Counted from the first letter of the stretch, positions 13,168-22,897 are shown. The stretch is DNA of 34,367 bases from Deltaproteobacteria bacterium (GCA_031279155.1 JAITJB010000120.1:1-34367); one strand, 5' to 3'. Program-made: numbers and translations. Notes: generated from the sequence alone by a model not told the origin.

Positions 13168-14154
13168 ATGACCAATTTTCTGAAAACCAAATTTCCCGTC
13201 ATAGTGCTGTCGCTAGTCTTGAGCTTTTTGTTCTGGTTGCGCGTCTCTGGCCAGAATATGACCACCCACGATCTAGTCTTCTCGCTAGTCTTAAACGATA
13301 TCCCCACCAACATAGCCTTAGGCGATAATACCCCTGAAACCTTTAACATTAGGGTTGAGGCCAATACCGCCCAGGCCAGGTTGTTTACCGACCGTAGGCA
13401 GGTGCTAAGGCTAGACATGTCTGACATCAGGCCAGGTAAAAATACCAAGGCTATCGATCGCGAGGCCATAACTAGTCTGTTACCCCGTGGAGTCAGGATT
13501 ACCAGGGTGACCCCGGAGGAGTTGGTCTTTGAGGCCTACGCCTACGTCGATAAAACTGTTCCGGTAAGAGTACCCGAGATAGGTTCGCTGTGGGAGGCGC
13601 TTGAAAAGAAAGGCGATTTAAAGATCGTACCCCTTGAGGCCGTTCTTTACGGTCCCTCTAATCGCTTAGAAGATATTATCGATGTTCCAACCAACCCCTT
13701 TAATTGGGATTTAGTCAGAAACATTGGCGCAACTCAAATCTTAAAGCCTCAGCTCTCTGGCTTAGACAGTTGGCTTAAAATCAGCCCCAATGAGTTTCGG
13801 GCGACGGCTGACGTCTCCGTTAAGTACAAAAACCTAGCCTTCGATGTCCCGGTAAAGCTTAAGGATCTGGCCGCTTTTGGTGAAAAGGCTAAAAACGTCA
13901 ACTTCCGGCCACAAGAGGTGGCCGTAACCGTGTCCTGGCCCATGAACCTGCCTGACCCGGCCCCAAGTTCTGATGGGGGGGTAATCATAACCGTGACAAT
14001 TGACCCGGCGACCTTGGAGCGCCGCAAGAGCCTGAGAGTCGATTTAGAGGTCGAGCATCCCAATCCCGACGTCAGGATTATCACGGCTTATCCCCAAAGA
14101 ATTTTAGCCACCTGGGAGGAAGTAGACAAAACCTCCAATCAAGGTGAGGAGTGA
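13168..14154 (+). CDS. ybbR: YbbR/CdaR-like regulator of CdaA
   Basis: Membrane-anchored protein whose YbbR repeats face outside the cytoplasm and modulate CdaA. 328 residues: a short N-terminal cytoplasmic tip, one transmembrane helix (about 8-25, FPVIVLSLVLSFLFWLRV), then beta-rich YbbR-type repeats, for example KTVPVRVPEIG and LAFDVPVKLKD, each followed by P-x-x-V-x-V/A-style strands. The position between cdaA and glmM supports the call. No good ribosome site precedes the ATG at 13168. The stop TGA is three bases before the glmM ATG. Confidence 0.88.
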   Translation: MTNFLKTKFPVIVLSLVLSFLFWLRVSGQNMTTHDLVFSLVLNDIPTNIALGDNTPETFNIRVEANTAQARLFTDRRQVLRLDMSDIRPGKNTKAIDREAITSLLPRGVRITRVTPEELVFEAYAYVDKTVPVRVPEIGSLWEALEKKGDLKIVPLEAVLYGPSNRLEDIIDVPTNPFNWDLVRNIGATQILKPQLSGLDSWLKISPNEFRATADVSVKYKNLAFDVPVKLKDLAAFGEKAKNVNFRPQEVAVTVSWPMNLPDPAPSSDGGVIITVTIDPATLERRKSLRVDLEVEHPNPDVRIITAYPQRILATWEEVDKTSNQGEE

Positions 14155-16735: not shown

Positions 16736-16800
16736 TAGACGACTTTGGCGGGGATCGGTCAAAGTTGCCGGGCTGACTTTGAGCCCGAGGGTGTATGGGG

Positions 16801-16831
16801 CCCGGACATTATGGCGTCCGGGTTTTTTTTT
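16801..16831 (+). terminator. riboswitch terminator upstream of cbiZ
   Basis: CCCGGAC (16801-16807) and GTCCGGG (16816-16822) form a perfect 7-bp stem followed by nine T. It lies 31 bases before the cbiZ ATG. An upstream CGGGCT/AGCCCG hairpin (16769-16787) may be the alternative fold. Confidence 0.85.
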
Positions 16832-16861
16832 GCCTGCTTTTTAAACCTAGGTGGAGGCGTG

Positions 16862-18139
16862 ATGTTGATCGGAAATTATTATGAAGGCTTAGAGTTCTAT
16901 CGGGAAGACAAGATAATTTACGGAAAGTTCTTGGTTCCCCACCAAGTTGTGACCACCTGCCGGTCCGGAGGCGGGCAAAGAGATGATTTACTTTTTTTGG
17001 GCAATCACCAGGGCTGCGAGCCAGCCGGTCACTCCCATTCATTGGTGGCGGCCATCGAGCCCGATGTTTACCATAAAAACATCTGTTTGGCCCACGGGCT
17101 GGACCCACAAAGATGCGCTCTTTTGGGCACAGCCGCCAACATGCGCTTAGCCGCCGTTAAAGACCTAACTTTTAGGGATCTGACGGTCGTGGCCGCCGTG
17201 ACCGGCGGCGTTGAAGGTAACGCTGGCCGGGCCGGCGACCCGGCTTACGGTTGGGAGGGCCAAGATGGCTATGAGGCCTTAAAGAGGCCCCATGAAGAAA
17301 ATAGCCAGGCCCAAGAAAGACAAGCCAGCCAAGAAAGTCAAGAAAGAAAAGATAGCCAAGAAAGAAAAGATAGCCAAGAAAGCCAAGCCTCCGGGCTAAA
17401 TCCCAACCACGGGACCATCAATATCCTCCTTTTTATCAATCGGCCCCTAACGCCCGGCGCCTTGGCTAGGACGCTTATTACCATAACCGAGGCCAAAAGC
17501 GCGGCTCTGGCGGAATTAGCTGTAAATTCCAGGTATTCTAACGGTTTAGCCACTGGGACCGGGACAGACCAAATAGGCGTGGCTTGTAAGATATCTAAAG
17601 ATCAAAGGCCCATAACCAGTTCCGGTAAGCACTCCAAATTGGGTGAGCTCATCGCCCTATGCGTCATCGGGGCCCTTAAGGAGGTCTTAATCAGGCAAAA
17701 TGGCATGACCACGGCTCGCCAGTGCTCGGTTAGAATCCACCTTGAGCGCTTCCATGAGATATCGCCGGGCCGACATGGTTTAGCCAAAGAGACGCTGGTA
17801 AACATGGTGGCCGCCCACTTAGATGACCAGACGGCTTCGCTACTTAGGGAAAATTATCGGGGCTTGTTCCACGATCCCATGAACGTAGCCCAGGTGGCGG
17901 CCATGACGGCGATTAGGGACAAATTTAACTATGGGATACTACCGCCTTCGGTTTATGCCGAAGTCATGGTCCACCAAGCTGCCCTTCTGGCCGTTGAGGC
18001 TGGCGGGCGGACCGGAGAATTTACCAAATATTTAGAGAGGTTGACTGAAAGCCCCCCAGAAAACTCGGATCAAGGCTTTATAGAGTTGGCGGCCTTGGCC
18101 ATGGCCATGGGTTTTAACGATAAATGGCAGGAATTGTAA
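16862..18139 (+). CDS. cbiZ: adenosylcobinamide amidohydrolase, CbiZ family
   Basis: CbiZ cleaves the aminopropanol/nucleotide arm so that imported corrinoids can be rebuilt. 425 residues from ATG 16862; GGAGG lies four bases upstream. A longer frame from 16745 is rejected because it crosses the terminator. Family motifs are LLGTAANM, VVAAVTGGVEGNAGRAGDP, INILLFINRPLTPGALARTLITITEAKSAAL and ATGTGTDQIGV...SGKHSKLGELIA. Residues about 145-180 are a low-complexity insert rich in Gln/Ser/Glu/Lys (QESQERKDSQERKDSQESQ). The C-terminal 150 residues are a helical extension. The B12 riboswitch supports the call. Stop TAA. Confidence 0.9.
   Translation: MLIGNYYEGLEFYREDKIIYGKFLVPHQVVTTCRSGGGQRDDLLFLGNHQGCEPAGHSHSLVAAIEPDVYHKNICLAHGLDPQRCALLGTAANMRLAAVKDLTFRDLTVVAAVTGGVEGNAGRAGDPAYGWEGQDGYEALKRPHEENSQAQERQASQESQERKDSQERKDSQESQASGLNPNHGTINILLFINRPLTPGALARTLITITEAKSAALAELAVNSRYSNGLATGTGTDQIGVACKISKDQRPITSSGKHSKLGELIALCVIGALKEVLIRQNGMTTARQCSVRIHLERFHEISPGRHGLAKETLVNMVAAHLDDQTASLLRENYRGLFHDPMNVAQVAAMTAIRDKFNYGILPPSVYAEVMVHQAALLAVEAGGRTGEFTKYLERLTESPPENSDQGFIELAALAMAMGFNDKWQEL
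17300..17390. repeat. in-frame low-complexity repeat inside cbiZ
   Basis: GCCAAGAAAG-like 9-15 bp units repeat here, with the unit AGAAAAGATAGCCAAGAA occurring twice in a row. All stay in frame and encode a hydrophilic loop between two conserved CbiZ blocks. The base pattern resembles the AAGAAAGCGC array at 7071-7234. Confidence 0.7.
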
Positions 18140-18337: not shown

Positions 18338-21300
18338 ATGAATAATCACCCCCCTGTCAGGCCAAGAAGCAAGAACATTAATTACCAGGGTTTTAGAATG
18401 CGGCGCCATACAGTCGGCATTATTTTAGCATTTTTTGCTATATTTTTATTTCATTTGCCATTATATGCTGGTCAAGTATCAGAGCCAACTGTTGATAATC
18501 TCCAAAATTTACTGAATAACGCTGACGAAGGTGAGACCATATCATTTAATGGTAATATACCTGGCATTGATTTTAGTATTGATGACTCTATTATTAGCAT
18601 TAAAACCGAATTTTTAGTTATAACGGGCAATATTTCTAGCAATTTCAAAAATATGATAAGTGGAATATCATCAAGTATTTCAAATTTTGCATCTAGTAAC
18701 CTAACATCCTCGAGTAGCCAGTTAACTGATTTTGTTAATACATCGCTAAGTAATTTTATTGCTTCTATACCATCTAATATGACATATATTAAAGGTGATG
18801 GCAAACAAAGATTTAATAGAAATTTAATAACTATTGATAAAGGGAATTATGATAATAAATTAACAATCAAAAATATTAATTTTAATAATTTTAAATTATA
18901 TTATTCTAGATATGTCAACGTAGCTGGAGGTTTTGTCAATACATTTATTGGTAATTCTAAAGACACAACTATTGATATTTATACCTATTCCTTTGAAGAT
19001 AATATAGTGAAAGATATTAGTATAAAATTTTCAGGACTTAGTGATTCTCATTACCTTGCTGGCGGTGGCATTCTTGGTTTAAGAAACACAGGCCTAAATA
19101 TGCATAGTAATGGAATTGCATATTTTGGTAATATTTCAGGAAATTACTTTGATAATTTAGATATTAGCCTAACTAGATATAATGATCCCACTGCAGACAC
19201 GCCTTATCTTATAGGTGGTGGTGTTATCGGTATTGTCGCCGTGGACACGCTGGCCGCAAAATCTGGCTATGGAAGGTTAGACACTCTTTCTAATAATATT
19301 TTTACGACAATATCTGTTAATTCAGAAAATAATATAATTGGTGGCGGAATTGTTGGTATAGACAACAATAGTACCCAAGTAGGTACTATTGTTGCTTCAA
19401 AAATAAATCAAGCCATTGGTAATATCTTTGGCAATGGCCAGGCCGGCAATATCTCGGTTAAAGCCTATTACTCCTTAAATGGCGGCGGGATAATCGGGCT
19501 TAACGGCTTGTCAGCGGCCAGTACGCAGCTAGACTACCTCTCGCAAAATGTTTTTGGCGGCCTAAGCGTCTCCACCGGGACTTATTTGTTCGGCGGCGGC
19601 GTTGTGGGGCTACAAACTAATAATGACCCCCAAAATAGTTCCACCCAAGGACCAAGTTACAAACCGCCTGTAGGTTTTGCGAAAGATGAAGCTCCCAACA
19701 TAACTTCTATCATAAGCACGGCTACTAATAATGTTTTCTACAATGTCGATCTTAAGGTTGGAATCCTATCGACCGGCGGTTTACTGGAAGGTGGCGGCAT
19801 AATCGGGGTTCGGAGTTTTTCCGATCGGGCCCTGATAGATAACCTAGAAAGCAATTATTTTAATAATATCAATGTTGCGACCTATGCCGGTTCCACTCAT
19901 AGCGGTAATTTATTTGGTGGTGGTATAGTAGGCGTCGCATCAAAAGGTTATTCTTCTATTAATTTTGCTAATAATAATTATTTTAAACAGATAACTGTAA
20001 ATATTGCCGGGGACTTATATGGCGGCGGCGTAATGGGTGTTGATGCCCATGAGCCAGGCAATAAAAATAATATTGAAACTGGTGCGACTATAGGTAAGAT
20101 TTATAACAATACATTTACAGATATAAATCTAAATTTTGGTTCAAGCTCAGCACCAAATTCAGGTATGATATATGGTGGCGGCGTCATCGGCTTAAACTCG
20201 CCTAATGGAATAAATACTGCCTTGACAATTAATAACGATTATGATTTAGAAGCAATAAATAATAATAGATTTTATAATATAACTCTTAATGCTCAAAATG
20301 GTCTTTATGGTGGTGGGGTTATCGGATTGGCCAATGAGCTCGGTTACAGCCTAATCGGGCCTGTTGTTGATAATATCTTCAGTAATGTAAATATCAAAGC
20401 TAAATTTATTGAAGGTGGCGGTCTAATTGGTATATACTCAAAAGGTTTGGGTATTTTATATTCAGTAGATAATTCCTTCTTTCAAAATTCTACTATCACC
20501 TCCGATTACTACATCGATGGTGGTGGCATTATCGGGGTGACTGGAGACGCTTCTAGTCCGTCGGCCAATGGAATCTATTCGATAAAAAATAGTTATTTTG
20601 CAAATAATAAAGTTATTGCTAATAATGGTATAATAATGGGCGGGTTGGTTTATACTTACGGCTCAACAGCTGCTGAATTTCTAATTGAAGATTCTATATT
20701 TATGAATAATCAATTTATAACAGGTATAAATTCTAGTAGTTATACTCCAAATGATATGAGCATTTTAGATCCTAATAATTATGGAACTTTCGGTGCTGTT
20801 GTTGTCGATACTGGTATAAATATTTCTAATCAAGATAGTATAAATCTTACTCTATCGGCAACAGCAGGTAGTAGTCTTTTGTTTTATAATAACATCATAA
20901 AAAATTCTGGCCAAGCTGATAGATACAACTCTGTTTATATCGGTGTGATACCAGAATATAATTATGATTTAGCAAGTAATACTTTTAACGTCTCGGGTGA
21001 TACTTCAGAGATTGATGCTATTTTAACGATTAAAACCGAACCTTATTCATCTATTGCTCTTTATGATCCTATAGTCGTTAATCAAGATAGTAACAAAAAT
21101 TTTACCATGGTCGTTGAAGGTAGCGGCGAATTTGCCTGGGCAGGTGATAACATTTTTAATGTCCAAAATCTAAATAGTGATAATATAATAACATTAAAAT
21201 CCGGCTCTCAGACTATTTTTATGAATAGTATTTATGGAACAAAACAGACTGAATATTATAAACCATTTTCCTTAACTGCCCCTAATCATGATTTTGTCTT

Positions 21301-22810
21301 AGAAAGTGGGGCCCAGCTTAATCTGCTTGGCAATAACTATTTAGATGTTCACAAAGCAGATCTTAATGGTACGCTTTATTTTAATCTTACTAATGCGCTT
21401 GTTAACGACTATACCAATCCGATTTTAACGATCAATACGGCTCCTGATGAATTTGTTTCCCTAAAAGGTGCTAAAATCATCGTTAGCAATCTAAATTGGG
21501 GACAAACACCTGTGGTGGGCGATAAATTAGTGCTTATTGATACTGGTGAAAACGATAAAATAATAGATTACCCAGAAGCCATAGTTATTAGTGCTAAATA
21601 TGGGTATATTACGTATTATACAATGGTGGTCGATAGCGGTACGACGACTGATACCGGAACCCCGACTGATACCGGAACGCCGACTACGCCAGGAACGCCG
21701 ACTACGCCAGGAACGCCGACTACGCCAGGAACGCCGACTACGCCAGGAACGCCGACTACGCCAGGAACGCCGGCCGCAAACTCGGATCGTCAATTGGTGA
21801 TTAGAGTGCCGGCGCCAGACGATCCGATCTTAGTAGAATTAGGCCTTGAGCCCATCGCCGTCGTATCAGAGGTCAAATTGCTCTCCGAGGGTCAGGTAGC
21901 CGGCCTTAACCTGATCAGCCACTCGGTAAGTTGGCTAGCCGATCAAGCCTACCGGCAAGCTGATGTGGCCTTTGAACATGGCGGACGTAACTGGGCCCCC
22001 TTTGGAGGCCTAGACGGGGCTCTATTTAGTTCGAGGAGTATACATTCCACGGTGACCGTGGAATCTGGTTCGGCTATTGCCGGAATGGCCTACCGGGTAC
22101 CATTTTCTTCTTCCCGGCTCGTCATCGGCGCCTTCGTTGAGAGCTCCATAGGTGAATATGAAGTTACTGGCGGCTATAACTCCCTCAAAGACAATAATCT
22201 AGAAGCTACCGGTAGGTTAAGATCTATTGGCGGCGGTCTTTTGATTCACCATCGCTTCAATAACGGCATTTCACTGGAAGCTGGTGGCCGGGTTGGTCAA
22301 CTGCGCAATGAATTTAAGAGCTCGGCCTTTGACCATGAATTAGGCAACGTCTTCAATTACGATATCCAAACGCCTTATTTGTCCGCTTATGGCGGCTTGG
22401 GCTTTAAGTGGCAGATTAACGAGCATTCCAGTTTAGATTTTTCAGGTCGCTACTATTGGACTAACTTAAAGGGCCAGTCAGTAAAGTTGGATAGCCAAGA
22501 AGTTGTTGATATCCACGAGGCTACTTCTAAGAAGGTGCGCGGCGGCCTTCGCTATACTTTCTCACCCCAAAATAGTTTTTCTATCTACGCTGGCGGCTAT
22601 TGGGAGCGAGAGCTAGATTCTGACTCGACAATTTCTGTTCACGGTAAGTCAGTTGCCGGCGAGGGTCCCAAAGGCGATTCCGGCTTAGGTGAGGTCGGCG
22701 TGATGCTCCATTCGCCGGGTAGTAATTGGGGGCTTGAGCTCGGGCTTCAAGGCTATACCGGTAAGATCCATGGTTTCTCAGGTGGCTTAAGGCTACGTTA
22801 CCAATTTTAA
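18338..22810 (+). CDS. type Va autotransporter with GGG-hydrophobic-G repeat passenger
   Basis: Outer-membrane autotransporter of 1490 residues. An extended signal region (hydrophobic core about residues 25-43, cut near LYAGQ) is followed by a passenger of Asn/Ile/Ser-rich repeats. Twelve copies of GGG[ILV][ILMV]G (GGGILG, GGGVIG, GGGIVG and so on, DNA 19060-20540) recur every 35-66 residues, most preceded by N-x-F-x-N-I strands, consistent with a beta-helix. Then come a (TTPGTP)5 linker (about 1112-1145) and a roughly 290-residue barrel ending RLRYQF. GTGAGG lies seven bases before the ATG. The passenger is A/T-rich with G/C-rich patches; the barrel is like neighbouring genes. The ligand or target is unknown. 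Confidence 0.9.
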   Translation: MNNHPPVRPRSKNINYQGFRMRRHTVGIILAFFAIFLFHLPLYAGQVSEPTVDNLQNLLNNADEGETISFNGNIPGIDFSIDDSIISIKTEFLVITGNISSNFKNMISGISSSISNFASSNLTSSSSQLTDFVNTSLSNFIASIPSNMTYIKGDGKQRFNRNLITIDKGNYDNKLTIKNINFNNFKLYYSRYVNVAGGFVNTFIGNSKDTTIDIYTYSFEDNIVKDISIKFSGLSDSHYLAGGGILGLRNTGLNMHSNGIAYFGNISGNYFDNLDISLTRYNDPTADTPYLIGGGVIGIVAVDTLAAKSGYGRLDTLSNNIFTTISVNSENNIIGGGIVGIDNNSTQVGTIVASKINQAIGNIFGNGQAGNISVKAYYSLNGGGIIGLNGLSAASTQLDYLSQNVFGGLSVSTGTYLFGGGVVGLQTNNDPQNSSTQGPSYKPPVGFAKDEAPNITSIISTATNNVFYNVDLKVGILSTGGLLEGGGIIGVRSFSDRALIDNLESNYFNNINVATYAGSTHSGNLFGGGIVGVASKGYSSINFANNNYFKQITVNIAGDLYGGGVMGVDAHEPGNKNNIETGATIGKIYNNTFTDINLNFGSSSAPNSGMIYGGGVIGLNSPNGINTALTINNDYDLEAINNNRFYNITLNAQNGLYGGGVIGLANELGYSLIGPVVDNIFSNVNIKAKFIEGGGLIGIYSKGLGILYSVDNSFFQNSTITSDYYIDGGGIIGVTGDASSPSANGIYSIKNSYFANNKVIANNGIIMGGLVYTYGSTAAEFLIEDSIFMNNQFITGINSSSYTPNDMSILDPNNYGTFGAVVVDTGINISNQDSINLTLSATAGSSLLFYNNIIKNSGQADRYNSVYIGVIPEYNYDLASNTFNVSGDTSEIDAILTIKTEPYSSIALYDPIVVNQDSNKNFTMVVEGSGEFAWAGDNIFNVQNLNSDNIITLKSGSQTIFMNSIYGTKQTEYYKPFSLTAPNHDFVLESGAQLNLLGNNYLDVHKADLNGTLYFNLTNALVNDYTNPILTINTAPDEFVSLKGAKIIVSNLNWGQTPVVGDKLVLIDTGENDKIIDYPEAIVISAKYGYITYYTMVVDSGTTTDTGTPTDTGTPTTPGTPTTPGTPTTPGTPTTPGTPTTPGTPAANSDRQLVIRVPAPDDPILVELGLEPIAVVSEVKLLSEGQVAGLNLISHSVSWLADQAYRQADVAFEHGGRNWAPFGGLDGALFSSRSIHSTVTVESGSAIAGMAYRVPFSSSRLVIGAFVESSIGEYEVTGGYNSLKDNNLEATGRLRSIGGGLLIHHRFNNGISLEAGGRVGQLRNEFKSSAFDHELGNVFNYDIQTPYLSAYGGLGFKWQINEHSSLDFSGRYYWTNLKGQSVKLDSQEVVDIHEATSKKVRGGLRYTFSPQNSFSIYAGGYWERELDSDSTISVHGKSVAGEGPKGDSGLGEVGVMLHSPGSNWGLELGLQGYTGKIHGFSGGLRLRYQF
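21682..21771. repeat. 18-bp tandem repeat in the autotransporter linker
   Basis: Five copies of ACTACGCCAGGAACGCCG encode TTPGTP. They are preceded by two diverged copies reading TDTGTP. The unit is a multiple of three, so slippage changes linker length without a frameshift. Confidence 0.9.
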
Positions 22811-22833
22811 TTGATTAGATAGAATTTAAAAAA

Positions 22834-22866
22834 ATAGCCGACCAGTTTTTGGTCGGCTATTTTTTT
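22834..22866. terminator. bidirectional intrinsic terminator
   Basis: ATAGCCGACC (22834-22843) and GGTCGGCTAT (22851-22860) form a perfect 10-bp stem with a T-run after it and an A-run before it. It ends both the autotransporter (plus) and the universal stress protein (minus) transcripts. Confidence 0.92.
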
Positions 22867-22897
22867 GCTCTTTGCTTTGCTCGCTTAGCTTAGCATT

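What the first reader, a model, noticed from the sequence alone, without database searches (positions are those of the whole stretch)
18338..22810. Autotransporter with unusual GGG-hydrophobic-G repeat passenger and mosaic base composition
Twelve GGG[ILV][ILMV]G motifs and one degenerate GGLV mark repeats of uneven length, an arrangement I do not recognise from characterised adhesins. A/T-rich stretches alternate with G/C-rich patches (for example about 19220-19270 and 19430-19640), while the barrel domain resembles local genes. This suggests passenger exchange by recombination.
Basis: partly seen in the sequence, partly recalled or inferred. Interest (0 to 1): 0.5.

Follow-up and report, generated by a model that had tools for sequence, protein, structure and literature searches.

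The report
Termite-gut autotransporter with portable β-helix passenger
This is a cell-surface autotransporter, probably an adhesin, whose repeat-built stalk belongs to a family with no curated model that recurs across several bacterial phyla in what appear to be termite-gut genomes, and which in relatives has been swapped between different membrane anchors.

Summary
In detail: one 1,490-aa ORF carries 12 GGG[ILV][ILMV]G motifs plus one GGLV, uneven in spacing (35-66 aa), and base composition is patchy. It is a type Va autotransporter: the barrel model matches EspP/EstA/NalP (E about 1e-15). The passenger is predicted with high confidence (pLDDT 89) as an all-β solenoid, with no close solved structure (best E 4e-3, antigen 43) and no Pfam or NCBIfam family. 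The repeats are collinear in at least 21 other genomes of the own GTDB family, and in Zoogloeaceae, Desulfovibrio, Planctomycetaceae and Methylobacteriaceae MAGs that appear to be termite-gut. The passenger-exchange reading is not supported for this gene: the same nearest relative is sister in both passenger and barrel trees, and no donor exists in its genome. It is supported for the family: in one relative, two paralogues share about 93% identical ends around passengers of about 50% identity, and another relative carries this passenger on an unrelated barrel. The AT-rich passenger is a family trait (third-position GC lower than the barrel in 23 of 25). The G/C patch is the part with genome-typical codon use; a short recombination tract is possible but unproven. 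Function (adhesion) is inferred.

The parts
18338..18472 (+). N-terminal export signal (aa 1-45: basic stretch FRMRRH, hydrophobic core, likely cleavage near LYAG|QVSE); a second in-frame Met at aa 21 could be the real start
   Evidence: sequence read directly; homologues have the same layout
18473..19060 (+). N-terminal part of the passenger (aa 46-241), AT-rich, with two helices in the model, before the first GGG motif
   Evidence: AF2 model mf34d51d43744; GC3 0.17
19061..20677 (+). Repeat region: 12 GGG-ΦΦ-G units and the final GGLV unit (aa 242-780); consensus [IL]xGGG[IV][IV]G...NxFxxIxV...[IL]xGGG; predicted stacked β-strands
19418..19657 (+). G/C-rich patch (aa 361-440) inside the AT-rich passenger; GC3 0.63 over aa 361-420, like local genes (0.59); covers conserved units and the start of a disordered loop
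20678..21637 (+). C-terminal passenger (aa 781-1100); with the unit just before it (aa 727-780) holds many of the near-invariant residues of the family (YGTVTVDTG, NSLYFG, DPIxVxQ, GxGxFxWGGxN); possible autochaperone-like folding nucleus (inferred)
21638..21796 (+). Low-complexity Thr/Pro/Gly linker (GTPTTP)n; in-frame 18-nt tandem repeat at 21645-21772
21797..22810 (+). Autotransporter β-barrel translocator (aa 1154-1490, ends LRYQF) preceded by α-helix as in type Va translocators, plus stop codon
   Evidence: AF2 pLDDT 86; Foldseek EspP 3slj 3.7e-15, EstA 3kvn 5.1e-15, NalP 1uyn 4.8e-12
22832..22868 (.). Inverted repeat with T-run (AATAGCCGACCAGTTTTTGGTCGGCTATTTTTTT), probable intrinsic terminator, possibly shared with the convergent Usp gene
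   Evidence: sequence read directly; not tested with the scanner

Best explanation
It is a classical (type Va) autotransporter, most likely a surface adhesin of a gut symbiont. A Sec signal exports the chain, the C-terminal barrel inserts in the outer membrane with BAM, and the roughly 1,055-aa passenger is threaded out and folds outside as an elongated β-solenoid in which each GGG-ΦΦ-G...NxF unit forms one coil. The GGG turn and the NxF position are structural stacking elements; uneven spacing comes from loops of different length between fixed coil positions. Length and loop variation, AT-rich codon use and, in relatives, recombination between copies at the conserved signal and barrel ends diversify the displayed stalk. 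Shown: architecture, fold class by prediction, family distribution, exchange in relatives. Inferred: export, coil assignment, adhesion as function, and what it binds.
For: Barrel: AF2 pLDDT 86, top PDB matches EspP, EstA, NalP, AIDA-I, BrkA, Hbp; PF03797 in 3 of 21 homologues, best E 2e-12, TIGR01414 in 1. Passenger: AF2 pLDDT 88.8, pTM 0.90, almost all β with a regular strand pattern; the weak best PDB matches are β-helix autotransporter passengers (antigen 43, TibA) and other β-helices. Repeats collinear in full-length homologues with 11-18 GGG motifs. Same passenger in at least 22 of 37 genomes of the GTDB family and in MAGs of four other lineages. No enzyme domain detected. Exchange in relatives: L044/L045; L136 carries the passenger (A2 profile E 1e-97) on a different PF03797 barrel.
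Against: Pfam finds no barrel domain in the window protein itself; the barrel call rests on fold and relatives. Foldseek for the passenger never reaches E 0.001, so 'right-handed β-helix' is a class-level inference, and model coordinates could not be inspected. No experiment, expression or ligand data. A released or enzymatic role cannot be excluded.
Confidence: 0.8

Rival explanations
1. The window gene's passenger was recently swapped in by recombination from a donor of different base composition.
For: Passenger GC3 0.17-0.32 against barrel 0.51 and local 0.59; such swaps exist in relatives: L044/L045, L136 barrel change.
Against: Passenger and barrel share the same nearest relative and the same seven-row clade; passenger identity to that relative exceeds barrel identity; no near-identical barrel or passenger in the own genome; low passenger GC3 is a family trait.
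Confidence: 0.1
2. Only the G/C patch (about 19418-19657) is a short gene-conversion tract from a genome-typical copy into an otherwise AT-rich passenger.
For: GC3 0.63 equals local genes (0.59) while the repeats just before it are 0.23; 0 of 300 shuffles reach it; it covers well conserved units, where homologous pairing is easiest; relatives do recombine copies.
Against: No DNA-level donor among all fetched loci (best 72-75% over 68-92 bp); the sister L067 is cut off before the patch, so its state there is unknown; other AT-rich members also have uneven GC3.
Confidence: 0.3
3. The patchiness is partly an assembly artefact: strain variants of a repetitive gene merged in a fragmented MAG.
For: The genome is a 339-contig MAG and other contigs of it end inside autotransporter genes.
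Against: The frame is open over 1,490 codons and collinear with homologues from independent assemblies, patch included.
Confidence: 0.07
4. A chlamydial Pmp-type or GLUG-type adhesin with a divergent motif, i.e. a true member of a described repeat family.
For: Same logic: a short Gly-rich motif plus an F/N motif per β-helix coil (PMC11166332).
Against: No PF02415 or GLUG match in any of 21 members at E up to 0.1; third motif residue is Gly in 392 of 402, Ala in 2; only 8 Pmp core patterns among 35 proteins against 351 GGG units; unit 35 aa or more.
Confidence: 0.06

Closest known systems
Type Va (classical) autotransporters: EspP, EstA, NalP, AIDA-I, antigen 43
   Same: Barrel fold with preceding helix; signal, solenoid passenger, linker, C-terminal barrel ending in Phe
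   Different: Passenger has no close solved counterpart (best E 4e-3 to antigen 43, TM 0.10) and no curated family
Chlamydial polymorphic membrane proteins (Pmp; GGA(I,L,V) and FxxN motifs, PF02415)
   Same: Autotransporter whose passenger coils each carry a glycine motif and an F/N motif; in Pmps these are predicted structural and face the core (PMC11166332)
   Different: GGG-ΦΦ-G instead of GGA-Φ; F-to-GGG distance mostly 13-18; unit 35 aa or more; no PF02415 match
Antigen 43 domain shuffling (PMC10058404)
   Same: Passenger modules exchanged against a conserved translocator
   Different: Here shown only in relatives: one pair with sharp boundaries at signal and barrel, and one change of barrel type

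Membership tests
Type Va autotransporter | C-terminal β-barrel translocator with a preceding/lumenal helix | tested here: met
   AF2 model pLDDT 86; 223 PDB matches at E below 0.001 led by EspP, EstA, NalP
Type Va autotransporter | Match to Pfam PF03797 / TIGR01414 | tested here: inconclusive
   Not in the window protein; 3 of 21 homologues match PF03797 (best 2.2e-12) and 1 TIGR01414
Type Va autotransporter | N-terminal Sec signal | tested here: inconclusive
   Read by eye at aa 21-45; no signal-peptide predictor available
Type Va autotransporter | β-helical passenger | tested here: inconclusive
   High-confidence, almost all-β model with regular strands, but best PDB match only E 4e-3
Chlamydial Pmp | GGA[ILV]-x(14,18)-FxxN repeats / PF02415 | tested here: not met
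   8 such patterns in 35 proteins against 351 GGG units; no PF02415 hit
GLUG-motif proteins (PF07581) | GLUG profile match | tested here: not met
   no hit in 21 members at E up to 0.1
Self-associating autotransporters (Ag43/AIDA-I/TibA) | Self-association through the passenger | not testable with these tools
   needs an aggregation assay
PATR / AC_1 autochaperone passengers | PF12951 or PF18883 match | tested here: not met
   absent from the window protein and its 20 aligned homologues; present only in the distant L135

The most novel reading that the evidence does not exclude
A portable solenoid passenger with a GGG-ΦΦ-G coil of at least 35 residues circulates among unrelated diderm lineages of the termite gut (Adiutricaceae-like Desulfobacterota, Zoogloeaceae, Desulfovibrio, Planctomycetaceae), held together as one unit, changed between barrels, and used as a common habitat-specific adhesin.
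Probability: 0.4. Interest if true: 0.6.

Novelty: new variant of a known kind. Interest (0 to 1): 0.42.

Why it matters
If right, one surface-protein module is shared by several phyla that live in the same gut, with family members available to test what it binds (wood fibre, gut wall, protists or other bacteria). It also gives natural examples of cassette exchange in autotransporters with boundaries at the signal peptide and at the barrel, and a repeat family not represented in Pfam or NCBIfam with a confident but unmatched predicted solenoid.

Tried and rejected
Single-protein scan of genome contigs found nothing; the alignment query worked. PDB sequence searches: only weak chance-like hits, none with the profile. 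Plasmids, phages and viral contigs: no relatives, so no evidence of a mobile carrier there. Desulfovibrio passenger-barrel incongruence looked like a swap, but the AU test did not reject joint grouping in the barrel tree (p 0.41): rejected. The g7 syntenic loci showed no sharp passenger junction: the passenger diverges faster than the upstream neighbour, with silent sites near saturation. A DNA donor for the G/C patch was not found. Papers: no termite-gut autotransporter study found; the termite origin of the sample codes could not be confirmed in text.

Full report
Observation. ORF 18338-22810 encodes 1,490 aa. It has 12 GGG[ILV][ILMV]G motifs from aa 242 to 728 and one GGLV at 768, with spacings 35-66. 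GC in 200-base windows runs from about 0.22 to 0.59 along the gene. GC3 is 0.17 in aa 46-240, 0.32 in the repeats, 0.23 in aa 781-1100 and 0.51 in the barrel, against 0.59 in 17 local genes. The patch at aa 361-420 has GC3 0.63, that is, genome-typical. In a 60-codon scan the maximum (0.67, from codon 365) was reached in 0 of 300 synonymous shuffles. So both parts of the observation are real.

What the barrel is. The window protein matches no Pfam model, but 3 of 21 homologues match PF03797 (best 2.2e-12) and one TIGR01414. The AF2 model of aa 1150-1490 (31 sequences, pLDDT 86, pTM 0.84) has helices followed by long strands. Its best PDB matches are EspP (3.7e-15), EstA, NalP, AIDA-I, BrkA and Hbp. 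It is a type Va translocator.

What the passenger is. The AF2 model of aa 45-1105 (35 sequences) has pLDDT 88.8 and pTM 0.90 and is almost all strand, with about four strand segments per repeat. Foldseek finds only weak matches, best antigen 43 at E 3.8e-3 and TM 0.10, and nothing convincing in viral models. From 351 units in 35 proteins the unit is at least 35 aa (median 42), with GGG to F usually 23-29 residues and F to GGG 13-18; the third residue is Gly in 392 of 402 motifs. Chlamydial Pmps use GGA(I,L,V) and FxxN at fixed places in each coil, facing the core (PMC11166332); by analogy the GGG and NxF positions are structural and the uneven spacing is loop length. Membership in Pmp or GLUG families was tested and not met. 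Many of the invariant residues lie in aa 727-944, which may include the folding nucleus.

Who has it. The own genome is a 2.9-Mb MAG in 339 contigs. Within the class, the full gene was seen only in the own GTDB family: at least 22 of its 37 genomes match within the passenger, while the two other families of the order have none. The one congener shows barrel matches only. In a 395-genome phylum sample the passenger profile hits five family members and one distant genome. A scan of about 85,000 species finds 34 loci, labelled Deltaproteobacteria, Azoarcus/Zoogloeaceae, Desulfovibrio, Planctomycetaceae and Methylobacteriaceae. rpoB sequences of the Deltaproteobacteria, Zoogloeaceae/Azoarcus, Desulfovibrio and Planctomycetaceae bins are 43-62% identical between lineages (for the Methylobacteriaceae bin and one Zoogloeaceae bin the script picked a different gene, so they are not tested). 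The genes have roughly the composition of their own contigs, and two Azoarcus bins from different samples share a 97% identical upstream neighbour. Nine Zoogloeaceae copies are not one clade in the passenger tree (AU p 5e-10). Transfer between lineages is therefore likely, with mis-binning not fully excluded. The record names look like termite-gut MAG sets (own knowledge; studies such as PMC9137090 and PMC10281810), and the family is probably Adiutricaceae; both are inferences.

Was the passenger exchanged here? Window and L067 are sisters in the passenger tree (support 100) and the barrel tree (98), inside the same seven-row clade (97 and 99). Passenger identity (54%) exceeds barrel identity (46%). 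Other copies in the own genome are remote fragments (barrel 41%, passenger 34%). GC3 is lower in the passenger than in the barrel in 23 of 25 members (mean difference 0.15, Wilcoxon p 4e-7; related sequences, so p is optimistic). So the AT-rich passenger is a family trait. The patch has no detectable donor, and the sister sequence starts after it.

Exchange in relatives. In genome G005, L044 and L045 share 679 bp (93.5%) covering 5' flank and signal peptide, and 1,145 bp (92.8%) covering barrel and 3' flank, while the passengers between are about 50-60% identical in DNA, with silent sites near saturation. Four more G005 autotransporter loci share long stretches of 77-93% identity that include the barrel. 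In the near-closed genome G026 the same passenger (E 1e-97) sits on a barrel that matches PF03797 (4e-29) but not the window-type barrel (E 0.03). At a syntenic locus in four genomes of one genus the passenger simply diverges, without a sharp junction. So the module is exchangeable, but ordinary divergence is also at work.

Function. No enzyme domain, a long exported solenoid and a membrane anchor point to an adhesin or aggregation factor. Binding target unknown. This step is inference.

Noticed in passing
L044:3965-8362 and L045:4941-9356: Two paralogues in one genome with near-identical 5' flank, signal peptide, barrel and 3' flank but strongly diverged passengers: a clean natural cassette exchange.
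   Followed up: yes
L116, L117, L118, L120 (genome G005): Four further autotransporter loci sharing long stretches of 77-93% identity that include the barrel.
   Followed up: partly
L136:2865-6626 (minus strand): GGG passenger (8 motifs) on a different PF03797 barrel, in a near-closed genome.
   Followed up: yes
L135:314-5905: Distant relative of the passenger with GGAV-like motifs, plus PATR repeats and an AC_1 autochaperone domain; suggests a wider superfamily.
   Followed up: partly
L039:7600-12729 and L040:5262-10493: Linker between passenger and barrel expanded by several hundred residues of VGEPLxVxxKxA-type repeats; other members have Pro-rich, (GTPTTP)n or poly-Gly (L035) linkers.
   Followed up: no
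window 16745-18139: CbiZ-domain ORF (E 2e-52) contains a low-complexity in-frame stretch QERQASQESQERKDSQERKDSQESQ within the domain match.
   Followed up: no
window 13168-14154: 328-aa ORF between the DisA/CdaA-like gene and phosphoglucomutase with no Pfam match.
   Followed up: no
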